64,000 nt of DNA from an uncultured Methylibium sp. (GTDB taxonomy: Bacteria > Pseudomonadota > Gammaproteobacteria > Burkholderiales > Burkholderiaceae_C). This document shows positions 6,985 through 51,363 of the stretch, piece by piece; position 1 is the first letter of the stretch; every line of letters begins with the position of its first letter. Position numbers and translations under genes: made by a program. The notes beneath the pieces were generated by a model. It was not told the origin of the DNA. It ran no database searches and worked only from the letters and a program-made list of their open reading frames with translations. Location of the stretch: positions 18,971 to 82,970 of the forward strand of contig NZ_CADEFR010000009.1 of NCBI RefSeq assembly GCF_902826655.1, in the 5' to 3' direction.

Positions 6985-8022
6985 TCAGGCGTAGCGCCGG
7001 CGCGCCAGCGCCGCCCCGGCCGCCAGGGCCTGCAGCTTCTTCAGCGCCACCTCGCGGTCCATCGGCGCCAGGCCGCAGTTGGTGCAGGGGAAGAGCCTCT
7101 CCTTGCGGACGAACTGCAGCGCGCGACCGATGGTATCGGCGACCTGCTCGGGCGTCTCGATCTCGGCGCTGGCGACATCGATCACGCCGACCAGCACGTC
7201 CTTGCCGTCCAGCAGCTTCATCAGGTCGGGCGGCACGTGCGAGTGGTAGCACTCGAGGCTCACCTGGTCGATCGAGCTCTTCGCGAGCGCCGGGAACACC
7301 TGCTCGTACTGGCGCCACTCGTCGCCGAGCGCGTTCTTCCAGTCGATGTTGGCCTGGATGCCGTAGCCGTAGCAGATGTGCACGGCGGTCGTGCAGGTGA
7401 GGCCCTGCGCCGCACGCTCCAGCGCCTTCACGCCCCAGTCGGCCGCCTCGGCCATGTAGACGTTGAAGGCCGGCTCGTCGAACTGGATGATGTCCACGCC
7501 GTCGGCCTGCAGCGCCAGCGCCTCCTGGTTCAGCAGTTCGGCGAACGCAAAGGCCATCTTCACGCGGTCGCCGTAGTGGCGGTCGGCCACCGTGTCGACG
7601 ATGGTCATCGGTCCCGGCAACGTGAACTTCAGCTTCTTCGTGGTGTGGGCCCGCGCGAAACGCGCCTCCATCGCATGCACCCGGCCTCGGAGCTTCAGCG
7701 GCGCGACCACCTGGGGCACCATCGCCTTGTAGCGGTCGTTGCGGATGCCCATCTCGACCTTGTGCTCGAAGTCGATGCCGTCGACCTTCTCGAGGAAGCC
7801 GTGCACGAAGTGCTGCCGCGCCTGCTCGCCGTCGCCGACGATGTCCAGGCCGGCATCCTCCTGGGCCTTGATCCACAACAGCGTCGCATCGCACTTGGCC
7901 TGGTCGAGCTCGGCGCCCTGCGCCTTCCATTGCGGCCACAGCTTGTTGGTCTCGGCCAGCCAGCCCGGCTTGGGCAGGCTGCCGGCCAGCGTCGTCGGGA
8001 ACAGCGGTCGATCCTGGGCCAT
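6985..8022 (-). CDS. Core-MetE-type methionine synthase (folate-independent, MesD-like)
   Basis: A 345-residue protein equivalent to the C-terminal catalytic half of MetE. Zinc and thiol-activation residues are in place: H215 and C217 (VHICYGYG), E257 (SLECYH) and C316 (CTNCGLAP). It lacks the N-terminal half that binds methyltetrahydrofolate in full-length MetE. The start TLAGSLPKPGWLAETNKLWPQWK and FNVYMAEAADWG resemble, from memory, the MesD group of short folate-independent methionine synthases. MesD normally works with a neighbouring DUF1852 protein (MesX), which is absent here. The methyl donor is therefore uncertain. The start codon faces a divergent SRPBCC gene across 115 bases. Confidence 0.8.
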   Translation of the reverse strand: MAQDRPLFPTTLAGSLPKPGWLAETNKLWPQWKAQGAELDQAKCDATLLWIKAQEDAGLDIVGDGEQARQHFVHGFLEKVDGIDFEHKVEMGIRNDRYKAMVPQVVAPLKLRGRVHAMEARFARAHTTKKLKFTLPGPMTIVDTVADRHYGDRVKMAFAFAELLNQEALALQADGVDIIQFDEPAFNVYMAEAADWGVKALERAAQGLTCTTAVHICYGYGIQANIDWKNALGDEWRQYEQVFPALAKSSIDQVSLECYHSHVPPDLMKLLDGKDVLVGVIDVASAEIETPEQVADTIGRALQFVRKERLFPCTNCGLAPMDREVALKKLQALAAGAALARRRYA

Positions 8023-14699: not shown

Positions 14700-16499
14700 T
14701 CAGCCGCCCCGGGTCGGCGCGCGCGTCTTGGCGTCCTCGCGCTCCTGCAGCACGCGCCACAGCACCTTGCCGGCGCCGGACTTGGGCAGCGCGTCGACGA
14801 ACTCCACGTCGCGCGGGTACTTGTACGCGGCCATCTGCTCGCGCGCCCACTCGACGATCTGCTCGGCGGTCACGTCCTGGCGGTCGTGGCGCTTGACGAT
14901 CACCGCCTTGACCGACTCGCCGCGGTAGGCATCGTGGGTCGCGATGATGCAGGCCTCCTGCACCGCCGGATGCTTGTAGAGCATCAGCTCGACCTCGGCG
15001 GGCCAGACCTTGAAGCCGCTGGCGTTGATCATCCGCTTGAGCCGGTCGGTCAGGAAGAAGTAGCCTTCCTCGTCCATGCGGCCCAGGTCGCCGGTGCGGA
15101 AGAAGAGCTTGTCGTCGCCCTTGATCTTCACGAAGGCCGCGGCCGTGGCCTCCGGGTGGCGCCAGTAGCCCTTGAAGACCATCGGGCCGTGGGTGACGAT
15201 CTCGCCGGTCTCGCCGGGCAGCAGCTCCTCCAGCGTGTCCGGATTGACGACGCGCGAGTCGACGCCGTAGATCGGGATGCCCAGGCACTGCAGCTTGGCG
15301 CGCTCGGGCGGGTTGCCATGGCTGGGCGCGGCGGTCTCGGTCAGGCCGTAGCCTTCGGCGAAGGTCAGGCCGAACTCGTCCAGCAGGCGCTGCGCCACCG
15401 CGTGCGGCATCGCCGCGCCGCCGCCGCTGATGTAGCGCAGGCTCGAGAGGTCGAAGGCCTTGTAGTTCGGGCTGCCGAACAGGTCGATGATCATCGTCGG
15501 GATGCAGGTCCAGTGCGTCACGCGATGCCGCGAGATCAGCGTGCCGGCCAGCTCGCGGTCCCAGCGCGGCATCAGCACGACCGTGCCGCCCAGGTAGACC
15601 GAGCCCAGCACCGAATACATCATCCCGGTGACGTGGAACAGCGGCACCACGCCCAGCGACACCGACTCGGGGCCGCCGTAGCCCCACTGCCCGCCGCCGA
15701 CGGCGTTGCTCATCAGCGTGCGGTGGGTGTGCATGCAGCCCTTGGGCAGGCCGGTGGTGCCGGACGTGTAGGGCAGCAGCGCCAGGTCGTCGGGCTGCGC
15801 GGTGTGCGGTCCGGGGGCATGACCGGCCGCGATCGCATCGGGCCAGCGCGTGACCGGCAGGTCGGGCGACACGCTGGTCGGCAGGGGCGGGTCGGCGCGC
15901 AGCCACTGGTCCATCGCCGGCGCCACCGACAGGCCCTCGGGATAGCGATCCGGCAGGGCGTCGGCATAGCGCGTCACCAGCAGGTGCTGCAGGCGCTGCG
16001 CCGGCGGCAGCGCGGCATCGGCGGTGGCGACGTTGACGGCCAGGTCCGCGCTGGCAACGACCACCCGCGTCTGCGGATCGGTGATGTAGTGACCGACCTC
16101 GTCGGCCTTGTTCATCGGGTTGACCGGTACGACGACGGCGTCGGCGCGCAGGATCGCGTAGTACGCCACGATGTACTGCGGACAGTTCTGCAGGTACAGC
16201 GCCACGCGCTCGCCGGCCTTCACGCCGGCCACCCGCTGCAGCCAGCCGGCCAGCGCCTCGGCCTGGCGCTGCAGTTCGCGGTAGCTCAGCGTGCGGCCGA
16301 GGAACACGTAGGCGGCCTTGTCCGGATAGCGCCGCGCCGTCACCTCCAGGTTGAACCACAGGGTCGTGTCGGGGATCACCAGTTCGCGCGGCAGGCGTGC
16401 CGGCCAGACCTTGAGATGCGGCCGGTCGGCGGGCACGGGGCTCGTGGGGCTCGTGGGGCTCGGGGGGCTCGGGGGGCTGACGGGACTCACAGGGCTCAC
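14700..16499 (-). CDS. Long-chain fatty-acid-CoA ligase family protein
   Basis: A 599-residue AMP-forming ligase that activates a carboxylic acid with ATP and joins it to CoA. Visible motifs are the AMP-binding loop LLPYTSGTTGLPKG, the region FAEGYGLTETAA, the hinge TGDLGRMDEEGYFFLTDR, and the catalytic Lys near the C-terminus in LPKSGAGKVLWR. Chain length preference is not clear. The preferred GTG start at 16499 (GGAG nine bases upstream) lies inside a 9-bp tandem repeat that encodes Ser-Pro-X units, giving a disordered N-terminus of about 25 residues before the conserved part. It is coupled to the downstream hydrolase gene. Confidence 0.88.
   Translation of the reverse strand: MSPVSPVSPPSPPSPTSPTSPVPADRPHLKVWPARLPRELVIPDTTLWFNLEVTARRYPDKAAYVFLGRTLSYRELQRQAEALAGWLQRVAGVKAGERVALYLQNCPQYIVAYYAILRADAVVVPVNPMNKADEVGHYITDPQTRVVVASADLAVNVATADAALPPAQRLQHLLVTRYADALPDRYPEGLSVAPAMDQWLRADPPLPTSVSPDLPVTRWPDAIAAGHAPGPHTAQPDDLALLPYTSGTTGLPKGCMHTHRTLMSNAVGGGQWGYGGPESVSLGVVPLFHVTGMMYSVLGSVYLGGTVVLMPRWDRELAGTLISRHRVTHWTCIPTMIIDLFGSPNYKAFDLSSLRYISGGGAAMPHAVAQRLLDEFGLTFAEGYGLTETAAPSHGNPPERAKLQCLGIPIYGVDSRVVNPDTLEELLPGETGEIVTHGPMVFKGYWRHPEATAAAFVKIKGDDKLFFRTGDLGRMDEEGYFFLTDRLKRMINASGFKVWPAEVELMLYKHPAVQEACIIATHDAYRGESVKAVIVKRHDRQDVTAEQIVEWAREQMAAYKYPRDVEFVDALPKSGAGKVLWRVLQEREDAKTRAPTRGG
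16437..16499 (-). repeat. Seven 9-bp tandem units spanning the acyl-CoA ligase start codon
   Basis: Seven 9-base units (16437-45, 46-54, 55-63, 64-72, 73-81, 82-90 and 91-99) with plus-strand consensus GGGGCTCgn. On the minus strand they encode V/T/P-S-P repeats. The first base of the likely GTG start is the last base of the array, and the next unit offers another in-frame GTG. Changes in copy number would keep the reading frame. Confidence 0.85.
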
Positions 16500-23207: not shown

Positions 23208-25025
23208 ATGGACACCCGCACCCACCCCGCCCGCCTGCGGCTCGAGCAGCTGCGCACCCGCATGGCCGCGAACGGCTTCGACGCCGTGCTGCTGCCGTCC
23301 AGCGACCCGCACCTGTCGGAGTACCTGCCCGGCCACTGGCAGGGCCGCGAATGGTTCTCGGGCTTCACCGGCTCGATGGGCACGCTGGTCGTGCTGGCCG
23401 ATCGCGCCGCCCTGTTCGCCGACAGCCGCTACTGGGTCCAGGCCGAGGCCGAGCTCACCGGCAGCAGCGTCGAGCTCGTGAAGATCGCGACCGGCAGTTC
23501 GGCCGCGCATGTCGACTGGCTGGTCGCGCAGCTGAAGCCCGGGCAGACGCTCGCGGTCGACGGCGCGGTGCTGGGCCTGGCGGCGGCGCAGTCGCTGCGC
23601 GCCGCGCTGGCGACAGCCGGCATCGCGCTGCGCACCGACACCGACCCGCTGGCCGGCGCCTGGCCCGAGCGGCCGACCCTGCCGACGGCCGGCGTCTACG
23701 AGCACCGCGCGCCCGAGGCACCGACCTCCCGCGCCGACAAGCTGTCACTGTTGCGGACGGCCATGGCGCAGCACGGCGCGAGCCACCACCTGGTCTCGAC
23801 GCTCGACGACATCGCCTGGCTCTTCAACCTGCGCGGCGCGGACGTCGACTACAACCCGGTGTTCCTGGCACACGCGATCGTCGCGCCGGGCGGCGTGCAG
23901 CTCTTCGTCGGCGACGGCAAGATCGACGCGGCACTGGCCGCGACGCTGGCCGCCGACGGCGTGCAGTTGCGGCCCTACGACGCGGCCCGCGCGACGCTCG
24001 GCGCGCTGCCCGCCGACGCGACGCTGCTGATCGACCCGCGACGCGTCACCCTCGGCCTGCGCGAGGCGGTGGCGGTCGGCGTGCGCATCGTCGAGTCGAT
24101 CAACCCGTCGACGCTGGCCAAGAGCCGCAAGACCGCCGCCGAAGCCGGCTTCATCCGCGAAGCCATGGCGCGCGACGGCGCCGCGATGTGCGCCTTCTAC
24201 GCCTGGTTCGAGCAGGCGCTCGGCCGCGAGACGATCACCGAGCTGACGATCGCCGAGCGCCTGAGCGCGGAACGCCAGAAGCAGCCCGGCTACGTCAGCC
24301 TGAGCTTCCCGGTGATCGCCGGCTTCAATGCCAACGGTGCGATGCCGCACTACCGCGCCACGCCGGACTCGCACGCCATCGTCTCCCGCCCCGACGGAGT
24401 CGCGGCCGACGGCCTGCTGCTGATCGACTCCGGCGCGCAGTACCTCGGCGGCACCACCGACATCACGCGCGTGTGGCCGATCGGCACGCCGAGCGCCGCC
24501 ATGAAGCGCGACGTCACGCTGGTGCTCAAGGGCACGATCGCGCTGTCGCGCGCGCGCTTTCCGCGCGGCACGCCCAGCCCCATGCTGGACGCGCTGGCGC
24601 GCGCGCCGCTGTGGGCCGAGAGCCTGGAGTTCGGTCACGGCACCGGCCACGGCGTCGGCTACTTCCTCAACGTGCACGAAGGCCCGCAGTCCATCAGCAA
24701 GGCCGTGCCCGCGCCCGAGATGGCGATGGAAGCCGGCATGGTCACCAGCATCGAACCGGGCCTGTACCGGCCGGGCCGCTGGGGCGTGCGGATCGAGAAC
24801 CTGGTGATGAACGTCGCCGCGCCGGCCGACGAGTTCGGCGACTTCCTCGAGTTCGAGACCCTGAGCCTGTGCCCGATCGACACCCGCTGCATCGACCGCA
24901 GCCTGCTGCGCGAGGACGAGATCGCCTGGCTGAACGGCTACCACGCACGGGTGCGCGAGCGACTGGCGCCGCTGACGCACGGCAGCGCCCGAGCGTGGCT
25001 GGAGGCCCGCACCGAGGCCTTGTAG
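23208..25025 (+). CDS. Xaa-Pro aminopeptidase (M24 family, aminopeptidase P type)
   Basis: A 605-residue metallopeptidase that removes an N-terminal residue before proline. Two creatinase-like N-terminal domains come first (residues 1-300), then the M24 catalytic domain with metal ligands in LLIDSGAQYLGGTTDITR, FGHGTGHGVGYFLNVHEGP, SIEPG and IENLV. A C-terminal M24C extension follows. The three-domain form and length match the eukaryote-like long aminopeptidase P rather than the shorter PepP of E. coli. Start at 23208 has AGGAAG upstream. No signal peptide, so cytoplasmic. Confidence 0.93.
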   Translation: MDTRTHPARLRLEQLRTRMAANGFDAVLLPSSDPHLSEYLPGHWQGREWFSGFTGSMGTLVVLADRAALFADSRYWVQAEAELTGSSVELVKIATGSSAAHVDWLVAQLKPGQTLAVDGAVLGLAAAQSLRAALATAGIALRTDTDPLAGAWPERPTLPTAGVYEHRAPEAPTSRADKLSLLRTAMAQHGASHHLVSTLDDIAWLFNLRGADVDYNPVFLAHAIVAPGGVQLFVGDGKIDAALAATLAADGVQLRPYDAARATLGALPADATLLIDPRRVTLGLREAVAVGVRIVESINPSTLAKSRKTAAEAGFIREAMARDGAAMCAFYAWFEQALGRETITELTIAERLSAERQKQPGYVSLSFPVIAGFNANGAMPHYRATPDSHAIVSRPDGVAADGLLLIDSGAQYLGGTTDITRVWPIGTPSAAMKRDVTLVLKGTIALSRARFPRGTPSPMLDALARAPLWAESLEFGHGTGHGVGYFLNVHEGPQSISKAVPAPEMAMEAGMVTSIEPGLYRPGRWGVRIENLVMNVAAPADEFGDFLEFETLSLCPIDTRCIDRSLLREDEIAWLNGYHARVRERLAPLTHGSARAWLEARTEAL

Positions 25026-25120
25026 CGCGCCAACCGTCAGCGATCCGGGGTGGTTCCACCACTCCGGCGCGCGGCAATCCGGGTTACAACGGAAGCGACG
25101 CCTGCCGGGCGCGCCTCGCC

Positions 25121-27293
25121 ATGACACCGCTGCGATTGCCGACCAGCCACCCTCTCGCCGCCATCGGTGGGGGGGTCCTGTGCGTCGGCGCACTGGTCTA
25201 CGGCGTGCTCGCGTGGAACGCGGTGCGCGCCGAGCAGATCGCCCGCATGCAGACCGTGCTGGAGATCGCGCAGAAAGCCACCAACAGCTACTTCGTCGAG
25301 CTCGAGGCGTCCATCGAAGGACTGGGCGACGCGCTGCAGGCCGGCCCCGGCCTCGAGGACATGCCCCGCGCGTCGACCCTGATCCGGCGCTTTCGCGACC
25401 TGCACCCCACCTTCACGGCGATCAACCTGCTGGACGTCGACGGCCGGATCGTCGCTGCGGCGGTTTCGCCGGATCGCGCGATGCTGCCGCGCGTGACGCG
25501 CGTGCGCGGGCCATCGTGGGTCGAGTTCCTCGAGAGCCTGACGCCGCAGACCAAGTTCGACCTCGGGCGACCCCTGCGTGCGACCGTCGCGCCCGGCTGG
25601 TTCGTCCCGATGCGCCACGTCCTGCGCGGCGCGGACGGCCGGCCGGTCGCCTTCATCTCGGCCACGCTGCCGGCCGACGTGCTGCAGCGCTTCTGGAGCG
25701 ACGCGCCGGTGGTCGCCCATTCGTCGCTGGGCATGATCCGCGACGACGGCTACCTCATCAGCCTGTTCCCGGCGCCGCCCCAGTCGACGCAGGACAGCAT
25801 CTACGGCAGTCCGCGCACGGGGGTCGTGCCGCGCGGCGGCAGCGGAGCCTCGCGCAGCGGCTACGCGCAGCGGCTACGCGCAGGGCGAGTCGTCGATCCT
25901 CGGCCTGGCGGGCGGCTATGCCTTCCAGCGGCTGGAGAACTACCCGCTGACGATGTTCGTCGCCACGCCGCTCTCGGTCTACTGGCAGGGCTGGTGGGCT
26001 GCCGTGCGGGTGCCCTTCCTGCTGCTCGCCCTGCTGGCGGTCGCCGGCGCGACCGCCCAGCGCGTGCTGCGCACCCGCCAGCTCGCGCTCGAAGCCGAGC
26101 GCCGCCGCGCCGAGGCCGCCATGGTCGAGAAGCGTCTGGCCGAGCATGCGAACCGCACCAAGACCGAGTTCATGGCGCGGATGAGCCACGAGCTGCGCAC
26201 GCCGCTGAGCGCCATCCTCGGCTTCACGCAGATCCTGCAGCGCGACACGCCCGGCACGCTGGTCCCGGCGCAGCAGCGCGAGCTGGAGCACGTGCTGCAC
26301 GCGGGTCATCACCTGCTGTCGCTGATCGACGACCTGCTGGACCTGTCCCGCGTCGAGGCGGGCACGCTGCGCCTCGACCTGACCGAGGTCGATGCCGCCG
26401 ACGTCGTGCGCGATGCGATGCGGCAGATGGCGGCGCAGGCCGAGGCGCGTCGAATCTCCATCGAGCTCGAGGTCCCGGCGCAAGCCCTGCCCGCGGTGCA
26501 CGCCGACCGCACGCGCCTGCGGCAGGTGGTGCTGAACCTGCTGTCGAACGCGGTCAAGTACAACCGCCCGGGCGGCCGCGTCACGCTCACCCTGAGCGCC
26601 GGCGACGGCATGCTGCACCTGCGGGTCACCGACACCGGACCGGGACTGACGCCGCAGCAGGTCGAACAGCTGTTCCAGCCCTTCAACCGGCTGGGCCGTG
26701 AAGGCGGCGACATCCCGGGCACCGGCATCGGCCTGATCATCACGCGCAGCCTCGTCGAGCTGATGGCCGGGCGGCTCGAGGTGGTGAGCGCGCCGGGCGT
26801 CGGCACCGACTTCCACGTCGAACTGCCGCTGTCGCCGTCGCGCGAGGCCGCGGGCGAGCATTCCGGCGGCCCGGAGCCGGCTCCCCAGGCCGCGGCACCT
26901 CCCGGCGCCGGCGCGGTGATCTACATCGACGACGAGGAGACCAATCGCATCCTGATGCAAGCCTACCTCGCGGCCCGCCCCGCCGTCCGTCTGCAGTCGA
27001 CCGGCTCGGGGCACGAGGGCATCGCGATGGCGCGCGCAGCGCCGCCGGACCTGCTGCTCATCGACATGATGATGCCGGGCATGAGCGGGCTCGACGTTCT
27101 GGCCGCGGTGCGGGCCGACGAGACGCTGCGCGGCCTGCCCTGCATCGCGATCTCGGCCAACGCCATGCCCGAGGAGATCGACGCAGCGATGCGGGCGGGA
27201 TTCGACGGCTACCTGGTCAAGCCGCTCGCGGTCGACATGCTGCTGCGCGAGATCGATCGACGGCTCTGTCCGGCAGCGCAAGGCACGCGCTAG
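25121..27293 (+). pseudogene. Hybrid sensor histidine kinase, frameshifted by a 13-bp tandem duplication
   Basis: Two frames together encode one hybrid kinase. The 5' frame (ATG at 25121) holds TM1 (residues about 11-31) and a PDC/Cache-like periplasmic sensor. The 3' frame (first ATG at 25953) holds TM2, the phosphoacceptor box ARMSHELRTPLSAILGF, ATPase boxes NLLSNAVKYNRP, DTGPGLTP and GTGIGLI, and a receiver domain with YIDDEETN and LLIDMMMPGMSGLD. The frames are separated by a perfect 13-bp duplication at 25852-25877. Removing one copy rejoins them as GASRSGYAQGESSILGLAGGYAF without a gap, giving a 719-residue protein. As sequenced, the 5' frame ends at 26701 (526 residues, no kinase). The ORF from 25953 could give a sensor-less kinase. 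A sequencing or assembly error is not excluded. Confidence 0.85.
25852..25883 (+). repeat. 13-bp tandem duplication that breaks the histidine kinase frame
   Basis: The unit GCGCAGCGGCTAC occurs at 25852-25864 and again at 25865-25877, followed by the first six bases of a third copy. Since 13 is not a multiple of three, the extra copy shifts the frame by one base. Confidence 0.95.
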
Positions 27294-27308
27294 CCCGCCG
27301 GGGAGACT

Positions 27309-28121
27309 TCACTCCTCGTCGCCGCCCAGCACCGAACCGAGCAGGCCACCCGCGCCGAAGCCGCCGAGCACCGAGCCCTCCTCGCGCGAACCGCCACGCT
27401 GCGGCGCGGCAGCGAACACGCGGCTCGCCAGGCGCGAGAACGGCAGGCTCTGCAGCCACACCGTGCCGGGTCCGGTCAGCCTGGCGAAGAACAGGCCCTC
27501 GCCGCCGAACAGCGCGGTCTTGATCTTGCCGACGTACTGGATGTCGAAGGCGGTGTGCTGCGTGTAGGCCACCACGCAGCCGGTATCGACCATCAGGGTC
27601 TGGCCGGGCTGCAGCTCGCGCTTGAGGATGCTGCCGCCGGCGTGCACGAAGGCGAGACCGTCGCCGTCGAGCTTCTGCATGATGAAGCCCTCGCCGCCGA
27701 AGAAGCCGACACCGAGCTTGCGCTGGAACGCGATGCCCAGGCTCACGCCGCGCGCCGCGCACAGGAAGGCGTCCTTCTGGCAGATCAGCGTGCCGCCCAG
27801 CGCCTTGAGGTCCATCGCGAGGATCTTGCCCGGATAGGGCGCCGCGAAGGCGACGCGCTGCTTGGCGGCAGCGTTGTTGGTGTAGACCGTCGTGAACAGC
27901 GACTCGCCGGTGATCAGCCGCTTGCCGGCACCCAGGAGCTTGCCGAAGATGCCGCCCTGCTGCGCCGAGGCGTCGCCGAACACCGTGTCCATGCCGATGC
28001 CGGCGTCCATGAACATCATGCTGCCGGCCTCGCCGATCGCCGCTTCGCCGGGGTCGAGCTCGACCTCGACGAACTGCATCTCCGCGCCCTTGATCTCGTA
28101 GTCGACCACGTCCATTGCCAT
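27309..28121 (-). CDS. AIM24/TIGR00266 family protein
   Basis: A 270-residue protein of the AIM24 (TIGR00266) family, a beta-rich fold of unknown biochemical role found in bacteria and mitochondria. Typical features are [26 protein letters not shown], repeated glycine-rich strands [27 protein letters not shown], and a C-terminal Gly-rich tail ([19 protein letters not shown]). Start 28121 is preferred because GGAG lies six bases upstream; an in-frame ATG at 28133 lies four codons earlier. It converges with the histidine kinase and is divergent from a diguanylate cyclase gene. Confidence 0.88.
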
Positions 28122-28241
28122 CTCGATCTCCATCAGTGCGATAGCGCACGTTTGCCAGCGCGGCATGGTAACGAAGCGTCGTGACGTAGTTCTGCGCGGC
28201 GCGGCGTTCTTCGACAATCGCTGTTGGCCTCACCCACCTTT

Positions 28242-28255
28242 GGGGGGATCCCCCC
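28242..28255. repeat. 14-bp perfect palindrome between divergent genes
   Basis: GGGGGGATCCCCCC is a perfect palindrome in the 174-base region between the AIM24-family gene and the diguanylate cyclase. It could be a protein-binding site or a cruciform/hairpin. No use is known. Confidence 0.4.
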
Positions 28256-28295
28256 GAAGATCGGCCCCGGAGAATCGAGTCGACCTCCAGACGCC

Positions 28296-29534
28296 ATGCC
28301 GGACTCCCCCGCCTCCTTCGCCCTGCACCTGCCCACGCTGATGCTCATGTCGGTCGTGGTCATGAGCGCGGCCGCGGCCATCATGACCATCTTCGGCATC
28401 AGCCAGCGCGTCTACCGCGGCTACTGGTGGTGGACCGGCGCGATGTGGCTGGCCGCGGCCGGCGCGGTGCTGCACGCGGTGCGCGGCGTCTGGCCCGAGG
28501 CCGTGGTGCCGGGCATCTTCCTGGTGCTGGTGTGGCCGATGCTGATCGTTACCGGCGTGCGGCGCTTCTTCGCACGCGACCGATTGTTCTCCAGCCCGGC
28601 CATCGACGCGACCGCGTTCGCGCTCTGTTATGCGGCCTGGCTGGCCTGCTGGGTCGGCGACATGCCGCAGCTGGTGCGCTCGACGGCGTTCAGCCTGTCC
28701 TCGCTGCTGCTCTACCTGTACGCGGCCGTCTTCCTCTACCGGATCGAGGAACGCCGGCGCAGCCCGGCCCTCAAGCTGCTGGTGCTGCTGATGATCGCGA
28801 TGGCCGCCGTGCCGCTGCTGCGCGTGGTGGCGCTGGTCGGCATGGCCGGCGCCGGCGACCTGCCGGCGCGTCCGCTGGTGGCGGCCGGCGTGGTGCTGCC
28901 GCTGCTGATCGGCATGCTGTTCACCGTCTACCTGTGCCTCGTGCTGACGCACGAGCGCACGGTGCGCGACCTGCGCGAGACGCAGCGCCAGCTGCGCGTG
29001 CTGGCCGACATCGACATGCTGACGCAGGTGCCGAACCGTCGTCACTTCGAGGAGCTGGCCACCGCGATCGTCGGCCGCAGCGGGGCCCCCTCGGCCGTGC
29101 TGGTGCTGTTCGACATCGACCACTTCAAGCGCATCAACGACACGCTCGGGCACGCCGTCGGCGACGAGGCGCTGCGACTGGTCGCACGCTGCACGCGCGA
29201 GACGCTGCGCACCCGCGACGTGATGGGGCGCGTCGGCGGCGACGAGTTCATGCTGCTGTTGCCCGGCGCGAGCGTCGACGACGCGCTGCTGGTGGCCGAG
29301 CGCATCACGCGCCGGCTCGATGCGCAGCGCAGCAACCTGCCCCTGCCGCTGAGCCTGAGCTTCGGTGTCGTGCAGATCGAACCCAGCGAAGCGCTCGAGT
29401 CGGCCCAGCACCGCGCCGACCAGGCGCTCTACGAGGCCAAGCGCCAGGGCCGCCGCCGCGCCGTGCCGGCCGCGTTGCGCGGGCCGGACACGGTGTTCGG
29501 CGAGAGCCGCTCCCTGGGTTTCGAGCCGCAGTGA
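28296..29534 (+). CDS. Membrane diguanylate cyclase
   Basis: A 412-residue protein. The first 215 residues form about six or seven hydrophobic helices with no recognised sensor signature. A short coiled-coil linker (THERTVRDLRETQRQLRVLADID) leads to the GGDEF domain. The active site GGDEF is intact at residues 314-318, and the RTRD sequence five residues before it fits the inhibitory I-site, so it probably makes c-di-GMP with feedback. ATG at 28296 is chosen because earlier in-frame codons run through the palindrome; no clear ribosome binding site is seen. It is the second c-di-GMP synthase in 12 kb. Confidence 0.9.
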   Translation: MPDSPASFALHLPTLMLMSVVVMSAAAAIMTIFGISQRVYRGYWWWTGAMWLAAAGAVLHAVRGVWPEAVVPGIFLVLVWPMLIVTGVRRFFARDRLFSSPAIDATAFALCYAAWLACWVGDMPQLVRSTAFSLSSLLLYLYAAVFLYRIEERRRSPALKLLVLLMIAMAAVPLLRVVALVGMAGAGDLPARPLVAAGVVLPLLIGMLFTVYLCLVLTHERTVRDLRETQRQLRVLADIDMLTQVPNRRHFEELATAIVGRSGAPSAVLVLFDIDHFKRINDTLGHAVGDEALRLVARCTRETLRTRDVMGRVGGDEFMLLLPGASVDDALLVAERITRRLDAQRSNLPLPLSLSFGVVQIEPSEALESAQHRADQALYEAKRQGRRRAVPAALRGPDTVFGESRSLGFEPQ

Positions 29535-50700: not shown

Positions 50701-51363
50701 TCACTTGCGGGTCCGCGTACCCACCACCTCGATCTCGGTGCGGCGGTTCTTGGACTTGCCTTCCTTGGTCTTGTTGTCGGCGACCGGCTGCTTCTCGCCC
50801 TTGCCTTCGGTGTAGATGCGGTTCTTCTCGATGCCCTTGGACACCAGATAGTCCTTGACGGCTTCGGAACGACGCACCGACAGCTTCTGGTTGTAGGCGT
50901 CGGAGCCATCCGAGTCGGTGTGGCCGACGGCGATGATGACTTCGAGGTTCATGCCACCCATCTTGCTGACCAGGTCGTCGAGCTTGGCCTTGGCTTCGGG
51001 CTTCAGCACGGCCTTGTCGACGTCGAAGAACGCATCGGCGGCGTAGGTCACCTTCTCGCTGACCGGGGCCGGCGGAACGACCGGGGCGGGCGCGGGGGCC
51101 GGAGCCGGGGCCGGAGCGGGAGCCGCAGCCGGAGCGGGGGCCGGAGCCGGGGGCGGAGCCTTCTTTGGGGCACCGTCGCAGCGCTCGTCGGCGGTCGCCG
51201 GGGTCCAGAAGTTGTCGCGCCAGCAGAGCTCGTTGGTGCCGTTCTTCCAGACGTTGCCGTCGACGTTGCGCCAGTTGTCGTTGTTCTGCGCAAACGCGCT
51301 GGAGGCGGAGGCAGCAAGCGCGATAGTCGCGAAGAGCGTTGCCACCTTGTTCAACTTATTCAT
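50701..51363 (-). CDS. OmpA-family outer-membrane/peptidoglycan-linking protein
   Basis: A 220-residue protein with signal peptide (residues 1-25, ending AFA). A short mature N-terminus (NWRNVDGNVWKNGTNELCWRDNFWTPATADERCDG) has two Cys. A flexible linker of Ala-Pro repeats (about residues 69-95) follows, then the OmpA C-terminal domain with FFDVDKAVLKPEAKAKLDDLV, GHTDSDGSDAYNQKLSVRRSEAVKDYL and NRRTEIEVVG. It binds peptidoglycan and probably tethers the outer membrane. No eight-stranded barrel is present. A strong binding site (AGGAG) supports the start. The gene has its own terminator. Confidence 0.92.
   Translation of the reverse strand: MNKLNKVATLFATIALAASASSAFAQNNDNWRNVDGNVWKNGTNELCWRDNFWTPATADERCDGAPKKAPPPAPAPAPAAAPAPAPAPAPAPAPVVPPAPVSEKVTYAADAFFDVDKAVLKPEAKAKLDDLVSKMGGMNLEVIIAVGHTDSDGSDAYNQKLSVRRSEAVKDYLVSKGIEKNRIYTEGKGEKQPVADNKTKEGKSKNRRTEIEVVGTRTRK

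What the first reader, a model, noticed from the sequence alone, without database searches (positions are those of the whole stretch)
25852..25883. 13-bp perfect tandem duplication splits a hybrid histidine kinase
GCGCAGCGGCTAC occurs twice in a row, followed by a partial third copy. The sensor half and the kinase/receiver half lie in different frames. Deleting one unit rejoins the frames exactly, with sensible protein sequence on both sides, so this is a recent event and not decay. Because the unit is tandem, slippage could restore the gene, making it an on/off switch for a two-component system. As written, the cell makes a sensor without a kinase, or a sensor-less kinase from an internal start. 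An assembly error is the main alternative.
Basis: seen in the sequence. Interest (0 to 1): 0.75.

Follow-up and report, generated by a model that had tools for sequence, protein, structure and literature searches.

The report
Sensor kinase gene broken by duplication
A short stretch of DNA copied twice in a row has thrown the two halves of a bacterial sensor gene out of register; this is an ordinary kind of gene-breaking mutation, and nothing found here shows that it works as a reversible switch.

Summary
A perfect 13-bp tandem repeat (25851-25883; two full units plus 7 bp) lies inside a hybrid histidine kinase gene (25121-27293) and separates the sensor frame from the kinase/receiver frame. 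Its 20 matching positions were reached in none of 40 simulated windows. Codon usage alone places the frame change at 25862-25876, inside the repeat. The 23 homologues aligned read straight through in one frame. The genus is Methylibium. The gene is accessory: in three of four informative congeners the flanking genes' matches lie only about 30-150 bp apart, and the fourth carries other genes there.

Best reading: one replication-slippage event between two 7-bp repeats already present made a frameshifted, probably null, allele. Reversal is possible in principle. The on/off switch is not supported: two units only, no second allele, no orthologue found, no such repeat near the junction in 55 homologue loci. 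An assembly error cannot be excluded without reads. Caveat: the stretch just before the repeat fits the family poorly, so the one-unit form may not be exactly ancestral. Reversible duplications and phase-variable sensor kinases are both known already.

The parts
25121..25864 (+). Sensor half: TM helix plus most of a periplasmic dCache-type sensor domain (248 codons)
   Evidence: P0001; dCache_1 at E up to 1 in 8 of 8 members of alignment A2, best E 1.5e-11, for this protein itself only E 0.0024 and below Pfam's cut-off; no Pfam family at E 0.001; 3lif_A E 9.3e-11 with the profile; hydrophobic segment around residues 12-30
25851..25883 (+). Exact 13-bp tandem: two units plus 7 bp (CGCGCAG)
25862..25876 (+). 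Most likely interval of the reading-frame change by codon usage
25881..27293 (+). Kinase half: end of the sensor domain, TM2, HisKA, HATPase_c, receiver domain (470 codons and stop)
   Evidence: hydrophobic segment around residues 40-59
25865..26701 (+). Out-of-frame tail that the sensor frame would be translated into, to its first stop (26699-26701)
   Evidence: negative codon score in every block after the repeat
25953..27293 (+). Possible sensor-less kinase (446 aa) from the first internal ATG of the kinase frame; Shine-Dalgarno-like GGAG about 15 nt upstream, weak
23208..25025 (+). Upstream neighbour: M24-family (aminopeptidase P type) metallopeptidase gene, matched in all five congeners
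   Evidence: Peptidase_M24 E 1.3e-46
27309..28217 (-). Downstream neighbour: TIGR00266/AIM24 family gene, matched next to the peptidase gene in four congeners
   Evidence: TIGR00266 above cut-off, AIM24 E 1.3e-72

Best explanation
An accessory hybrid sensor histidine kinase gene of a Methylibium species carries a frameshift made by one slipped-strand event. The one-unit sequence would hold two 7-bp copies of CGCGCAG, 13 bp apart; mispairing of one with the other duplicates 13 bp, which is four codons plus one base. Translation from the normal start then leaves the frame within the last part of the periplasmic sensor domain and runs into about 278 nonsense residues, so no full-length receptor-kinase is made. 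The allele is most likely a simple loss of function, recent because nothing else in the gene looks damaged. Reversal by slippage is possible in principle, as for any short tandem duplication, but nothing shows that it happens or has been selected. Shown: the repeat, the frames, the localisation of the frame change, continuity in homologues, the accessory position. Inferred: slippage as the cause, loss of function, recency.
For: Exact repeat far beyond chance. Codon change-point inside the repeat. The 23 homologues aligned, which I chose from the 55 homologue loci held, run through this junction in one frame. On a profile of these 23 the sensor frame as it stands scores 223 bits and the reading with one unit left out 310 bits. 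No further frame break in either half. The kinase is missing at this place in PM1, G001 and G004 and other genes stand there in G002, so relatives live without it. A second probable frameshift in the 464 kb held of this genome (L088 near 7155) shows that such lesions are not unique here.
Against: No reads and no second strain. The stretch before the repeat fits the family poorly: 18 residues from RTG to SS in the one-unit reading, exactly 20 in 21 of 23 homologues and 19 in two, and their ALxxxL...FP pattern is missing. A reading that puts the lesion a little upstream scores nearly the same on the profile (309.1 against 310.2 bits), although codon usage disfavours it by about 15 natural-log units. 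A frameshift-tolerant alignment also put the change upstream, at 25836, though with a scoring that favoured this.
Confidence: 0.68

Rival explanations
1. Assembly or sequencing artefact: the chromosome carries one unit and an intact kinase.
For: The assembly has 142 contigs and 100-N gaps elsewhere (two in L080); everything else in the gene looks intact; the site is GC-rich.
Against: No N in the window. The 33-bp array is shorter than a usual short read, and collapse is likelier than exact expansion (general knowledge). The site folds no better than shuffled sequence (z 0.57), so it is no special hairpin. The same frameshift detector gave 2 clear cases in 464 kb of this genome and 1 in 400 kb of the finished PM1 genome, so the assembly is not generally full of indels.
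Confidence: 0.17
2. Phase-variation switch: copy number flips between one unit (ON) and two units (OFF), giving a heritable mixed population in kinase activity.
For: Reversible duplications inside pneumococcal capsule genes and homopolymer switching of the sensor kinase gene bvgS are known (PMC4243769 and PMC1891110, passages read). A two-unit tandem with 20 bp of homology can revert in principle.
Against: Only two units; no second allele; no orthologue found in the genomes sampled; no such repeat near the junction in 55 homologue loci. [quoted passage not shown] the same passages report partial phenotypic reversion, and reversion of some variants in the insect.
Confidence: 0.08
3. The frame break lies just upstream and the 13-bp tandem is an innocent or older feature of a variable stretch.
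For: Poor family match and unusual length of about 25826-25860 in the sensor frame; the alternative reading scores 309.1 against 310.2 bits; one search put the change at 25836; the codon signal there is weak in all three frames.
Against: The codon change-point prefers the repeat by about 15 natural-log units; a perfect 13-bp tandem of just the phase that explains the frame change would then be coincidence. The upstream reading is 22 residues, as far from 20 as the one-unit reading.
Confidence: 0.07

Closest known systems
Spontaneous sequence duplications in pneumococcal capsule genes (Waite et al. 2001 and 2003, seen only as cited in PMC4243769)
   Same: Sequence duplication inside an open reading frame that inactivates the gene
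   Different: There it is described as reversible; here reversion is untested, and the gene is a sensor kinase of a bacterium of a genus I know as environmental
bvgS of Bordetella pertussis (PMC1891110, passages)
   Same: Sensor kinase gene truncated by a frameshift at a repeat
   Different: Homopolymer C6/C7 with described phase switching; here a single 13-bp duplication without a second allele
S. aureus agr phase variants (PMC6686034, passages)
   Same: One reversible variant carried a duplication plus inversion in agrC, a sensor kinase gene (kinase role recalled)
   Different: Different kind of rearrangement; reversion was measured there
lrp tandem duplications in Xenorhabdus nematophila (PMC6786866, passages)
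   Same: Small tandem duplications arising spontaneously in a regulator gene
   Different: 26-116 bp, found among variants from prolonged culture

Membership tests
Hybrid sensor histidine kinase | HisKA, HATPase_c and a receiver domain in one frame | tested here: met
   E 3.3e-19, 1.9e-29, 2.2e-21, all above the gathering score
Hybrid sensor histidine kinase | Periplasmic dCache sensor between two TM helices in the same frame as the kinase | tested here: not met
   TM1 and sensor are in one frame, TM2 and kinase in another; the dCache match of this protein itself is weak, E 0.0024. As it stands the gene is a broken member
Slippage-made tandem duplication | Exact adjacent copies with a short repeat that could have seeded them | tested here: met
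   13-bp unit twice plus the 7-bp CGCGCAG; the event itself is inferred
Phase-variable gene | Both alleles seen in one lineage or population | not testable with these tools
   One genome, no reads; no kinase at this place in 4 of 4 informative congeners
Phase-variable gene | High-rate reversible copy-number change | not testable with these tools
   Needs culture or a reporter
Phase-variable gene | Unstable repeat kept at the same place in related genes (supportive, not strictly defining) | tested here: not met
   55 homologue loci, 193 kb: two exact 10-11 bp tandems (L047, L120), both about 1 kb or more from the junction

The most novel reading that the evidence does not exclude
A two-copy 13-bp tandem acts as a reversible on/off switch for an orphan dCache hybrid kinase in a free-living Methylibium, so that clonal populations hold a minority of cells able to sense the signal.
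Probability: 0.07. Interest if true: 0.45.

Novelty: new member of a known kind. Interest (0 to 1): 0.14.

Why it matters
As a plain frameshift it matters little beyond annotation: the gene should be recorded as disrupted, not as a separate sensor and kinase. If reads showed both alleles, it would be a further case of duplication-based switching of a signalling gene, in a genus not known to me as pathogenic.

Tried and rejected
Chance repeat: rejected (0 of 40 simulations; shuffles). Old decay: no second frame break seen in either half. Special hairpin at the site: not seen (z 0.57, 139 of 200 shuffles fold at least as well). Programmed frameshifting: considered only, not tested. A generally indel-rich assembly: not supported. 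That detector gave 12 raw candidates in 464 kb of G000 and 9 in 400 kb of PM1; I kept those whose first stop lay more than 100 nt past the change point (2 and 1), a cut chosen after seeing the list. Its first version was swamped by antisense frames (268 hits in the PM1 sample) and was dropped; only its gene profile is used.

A frameshift-tolerant profile alignment preferred a frame change at 25836, but its scoring charged a 1-nt step less than a 13-nt step, so I do not use it to choose; searches replaced it. The census was inflated by N runs and was redone without them. The structure prediction of the sensor half alone was too poor to use (mean pLDDT 40.8). Orthologue searches with the sensor: 149 genomes of relatives, 399 of the family, 399 of the order, 369 of the class, own genome included each time, overlapping sets, E limits 1e-3, 1e-10, 1e-20 and 1e-30; best match outside the own genome 38% identity (G222). 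A scan of genome contigs confirmed no relative. DNA against plasmids gave only matches covering up to 2% of the query in the 20 of 24 records listed. Paper searches; one search returned none; no title or abstract beginning listed describes a 13-bp duplication switch in a hybrid kinase, but the listings were capped and only passages of five papers were read.

Full report
What is there. The window comes from a 4.22-Mb draft genome of 142 contigs. One of its five congeners (G003) has a 599,444-base second replicon, and the 4,001 bases of it that I searched match plasmid NC_008826.1 of Methylibium petroleiphilum PM1, of the same length, over their whole extent at 100%, so the genus is Methylibium. 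At 25851-25883 there is an exact period-13 repeat, two full units and 7 bp, with 20 matching positions. It is the only exact tandem with a unit of 9-60 bp in the window whose unit is not a multiple of three. In 400 kb sampled from the same genome there are two such repeats (10 and 11 bp, match runs of 11), and in 400 kb of PM1 five (10-11 bp, match runs up to 14); none of 40 simulated windows reached 20.

The gene. An ATG at 25121 opens a frame with one hydrophobic helix and a periplasmic domain (P0001). A profile of it with seven homologues finds the sensor chain 3lif_A (E 9.3e-11), and all eight members show dCache_1 in Pfam at E up to 1, best 1.5e-11, though this protein by itself only at E 0.0024. 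The kinase frame, open from 25737 to 27293, encodes the end of the sensor domain, a second hydrophobic helix, HisKA, HATPase_c and a receiver domain. Blocks of 30 codons score highest in the sensor frame up to the repeat and in the kinase frame after it, with one weak block at 26831, in the stretch between HATPase_c and receiver; the training set of this profile included the gene itself. With the gene left out of training, the frame change by codon usage lies at 25862-25876.

Homologues. In 23 homologues (26-38% identity over the sensor), chosen from 55 loci held, the two halves are continuous in one frame. Against a profile of these, the sensor frame as it stands scores 223 bits and the reading without one unit 310. 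Two things limit this. The open frames overlap by some 960 nt, so rejoining alone proves little. And the stretch between RTG and the repeat lacks the family's ALxxxL...FP pattern: it gives 18 residues from RTG to SS in the one-unit reading, where 21 of 23 homologues have exactly 20 and two have 19. A lesion slightly upstream would score almost as well on the profile (309 bits, and 22 residues), but codon usage disfavours it by about 15 natural-log units. I therefore accept the duplication as the likeliest lesion and leave the ancestral sequence of 25826-25860 open.

Context. The upstream neighbour is an M24-family metallopeptidase gene, the downstream one a TIGR00266/AIM24 family gene. Their matches in PM1, G001 and G004 lie about 50, 30 and 150 bp apart, with no room for a kinase; in G002 a short-chain dehydrogenase gene and a cupin gene lie between them; in G005 the match ends at a contig end. 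No congener has a close relative of the sensor (best congener match E 4.7e-6, 23%). The kinase is thus an accessory gene at a place that takes up different genes. Among the frames listed around it I saw no separate receiver or phosphotransfer gene directly beside it (by eye); a GGDEF gene lies beyond the downstream neighbour at 28224-29534.

How it most likely arose and what it does. With one unit the sequence contains CGCGCAG twice, 13 bp apart. Slippage between these gives exactly the observed array, and the 7-bp tail is that second seed, not a decayed third unit. The predicted product is 526 aa, the last 278 or so out of frame. A sensor-less kinase from ATG 25953 is possible but its ribosome-binding site is weak. 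Loss of function is the simplest outcome. This mechanism is inferred, not shown.

Switch or not. Precedents exist for reversible duplications (pneumococcal capsule, passages in PMC4243769), for phase-variable sensor kinase genes (bvgS, passages in PMC1891110; agrC, passages in PMC6686034) and for copy-number variation of promoter tandem repeats (PMC12817950, passages). Small duplications in a regulator gene also arise as spontaneous mutations described as not reversible, although partial phenotypic reversion was seen (lrp in Xenorhabdus, PMC6786866, passages). Nothing here separates this allele from such a mutation: two units only, one genome, no orthologue found, no such repeat near the junction in the homologues. 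The assembly-error alternative needs reads; the frameshift rate of this assembly looks normal by the detector used.

Verdict. Real observation, ordinary kind of lesion, switch unproven.

Noticed in passing
L088:7100-7210 (G000 contig C3): A second probable frameshift in this genome: a protein gene whose codon signal moves to another frame near 7155 in a GC-rich stretch.
   Followed up: partly
25025-27309, and L076:2230-3370 in G002: The interval between the M24 peptidase and TIGR00266 genes holds a kinase here, a short-chain dehydrogenase and a cupin gene in G002, and only about 30-150 bp in PM1, G001 and G004: a place of repeated gene gain or loss.
   Followed up: partly
25826-25860: No reading frame of this stretch looks well coded, its length departs from an otherwise fixed 20 residues, and the third frame reads SLAQRLRA, similar to ALVEHLRA of a homologue; possibly coincidence of GC-rich sequence.
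   Followed up: partly
28224-29534: A diguanylate cyclase-type GGDEF gene close to the broken kinase; no functional link was tested.
   Followed up: no
16437-16478: 9-bp GGGGCTCGT/GGGGCTCGG tandem, about 4.7 copies.
   Followed up: no
51081-51160: Imperfect 6/12-bp GCCGGA-type array of about 80 bp.
   Followed up: no
L113:13290-13904 (PM1): Long 6-bp and 12-bp arrays (TGCTCC and relatives) in the PM1 control sample.
   Followed up: no
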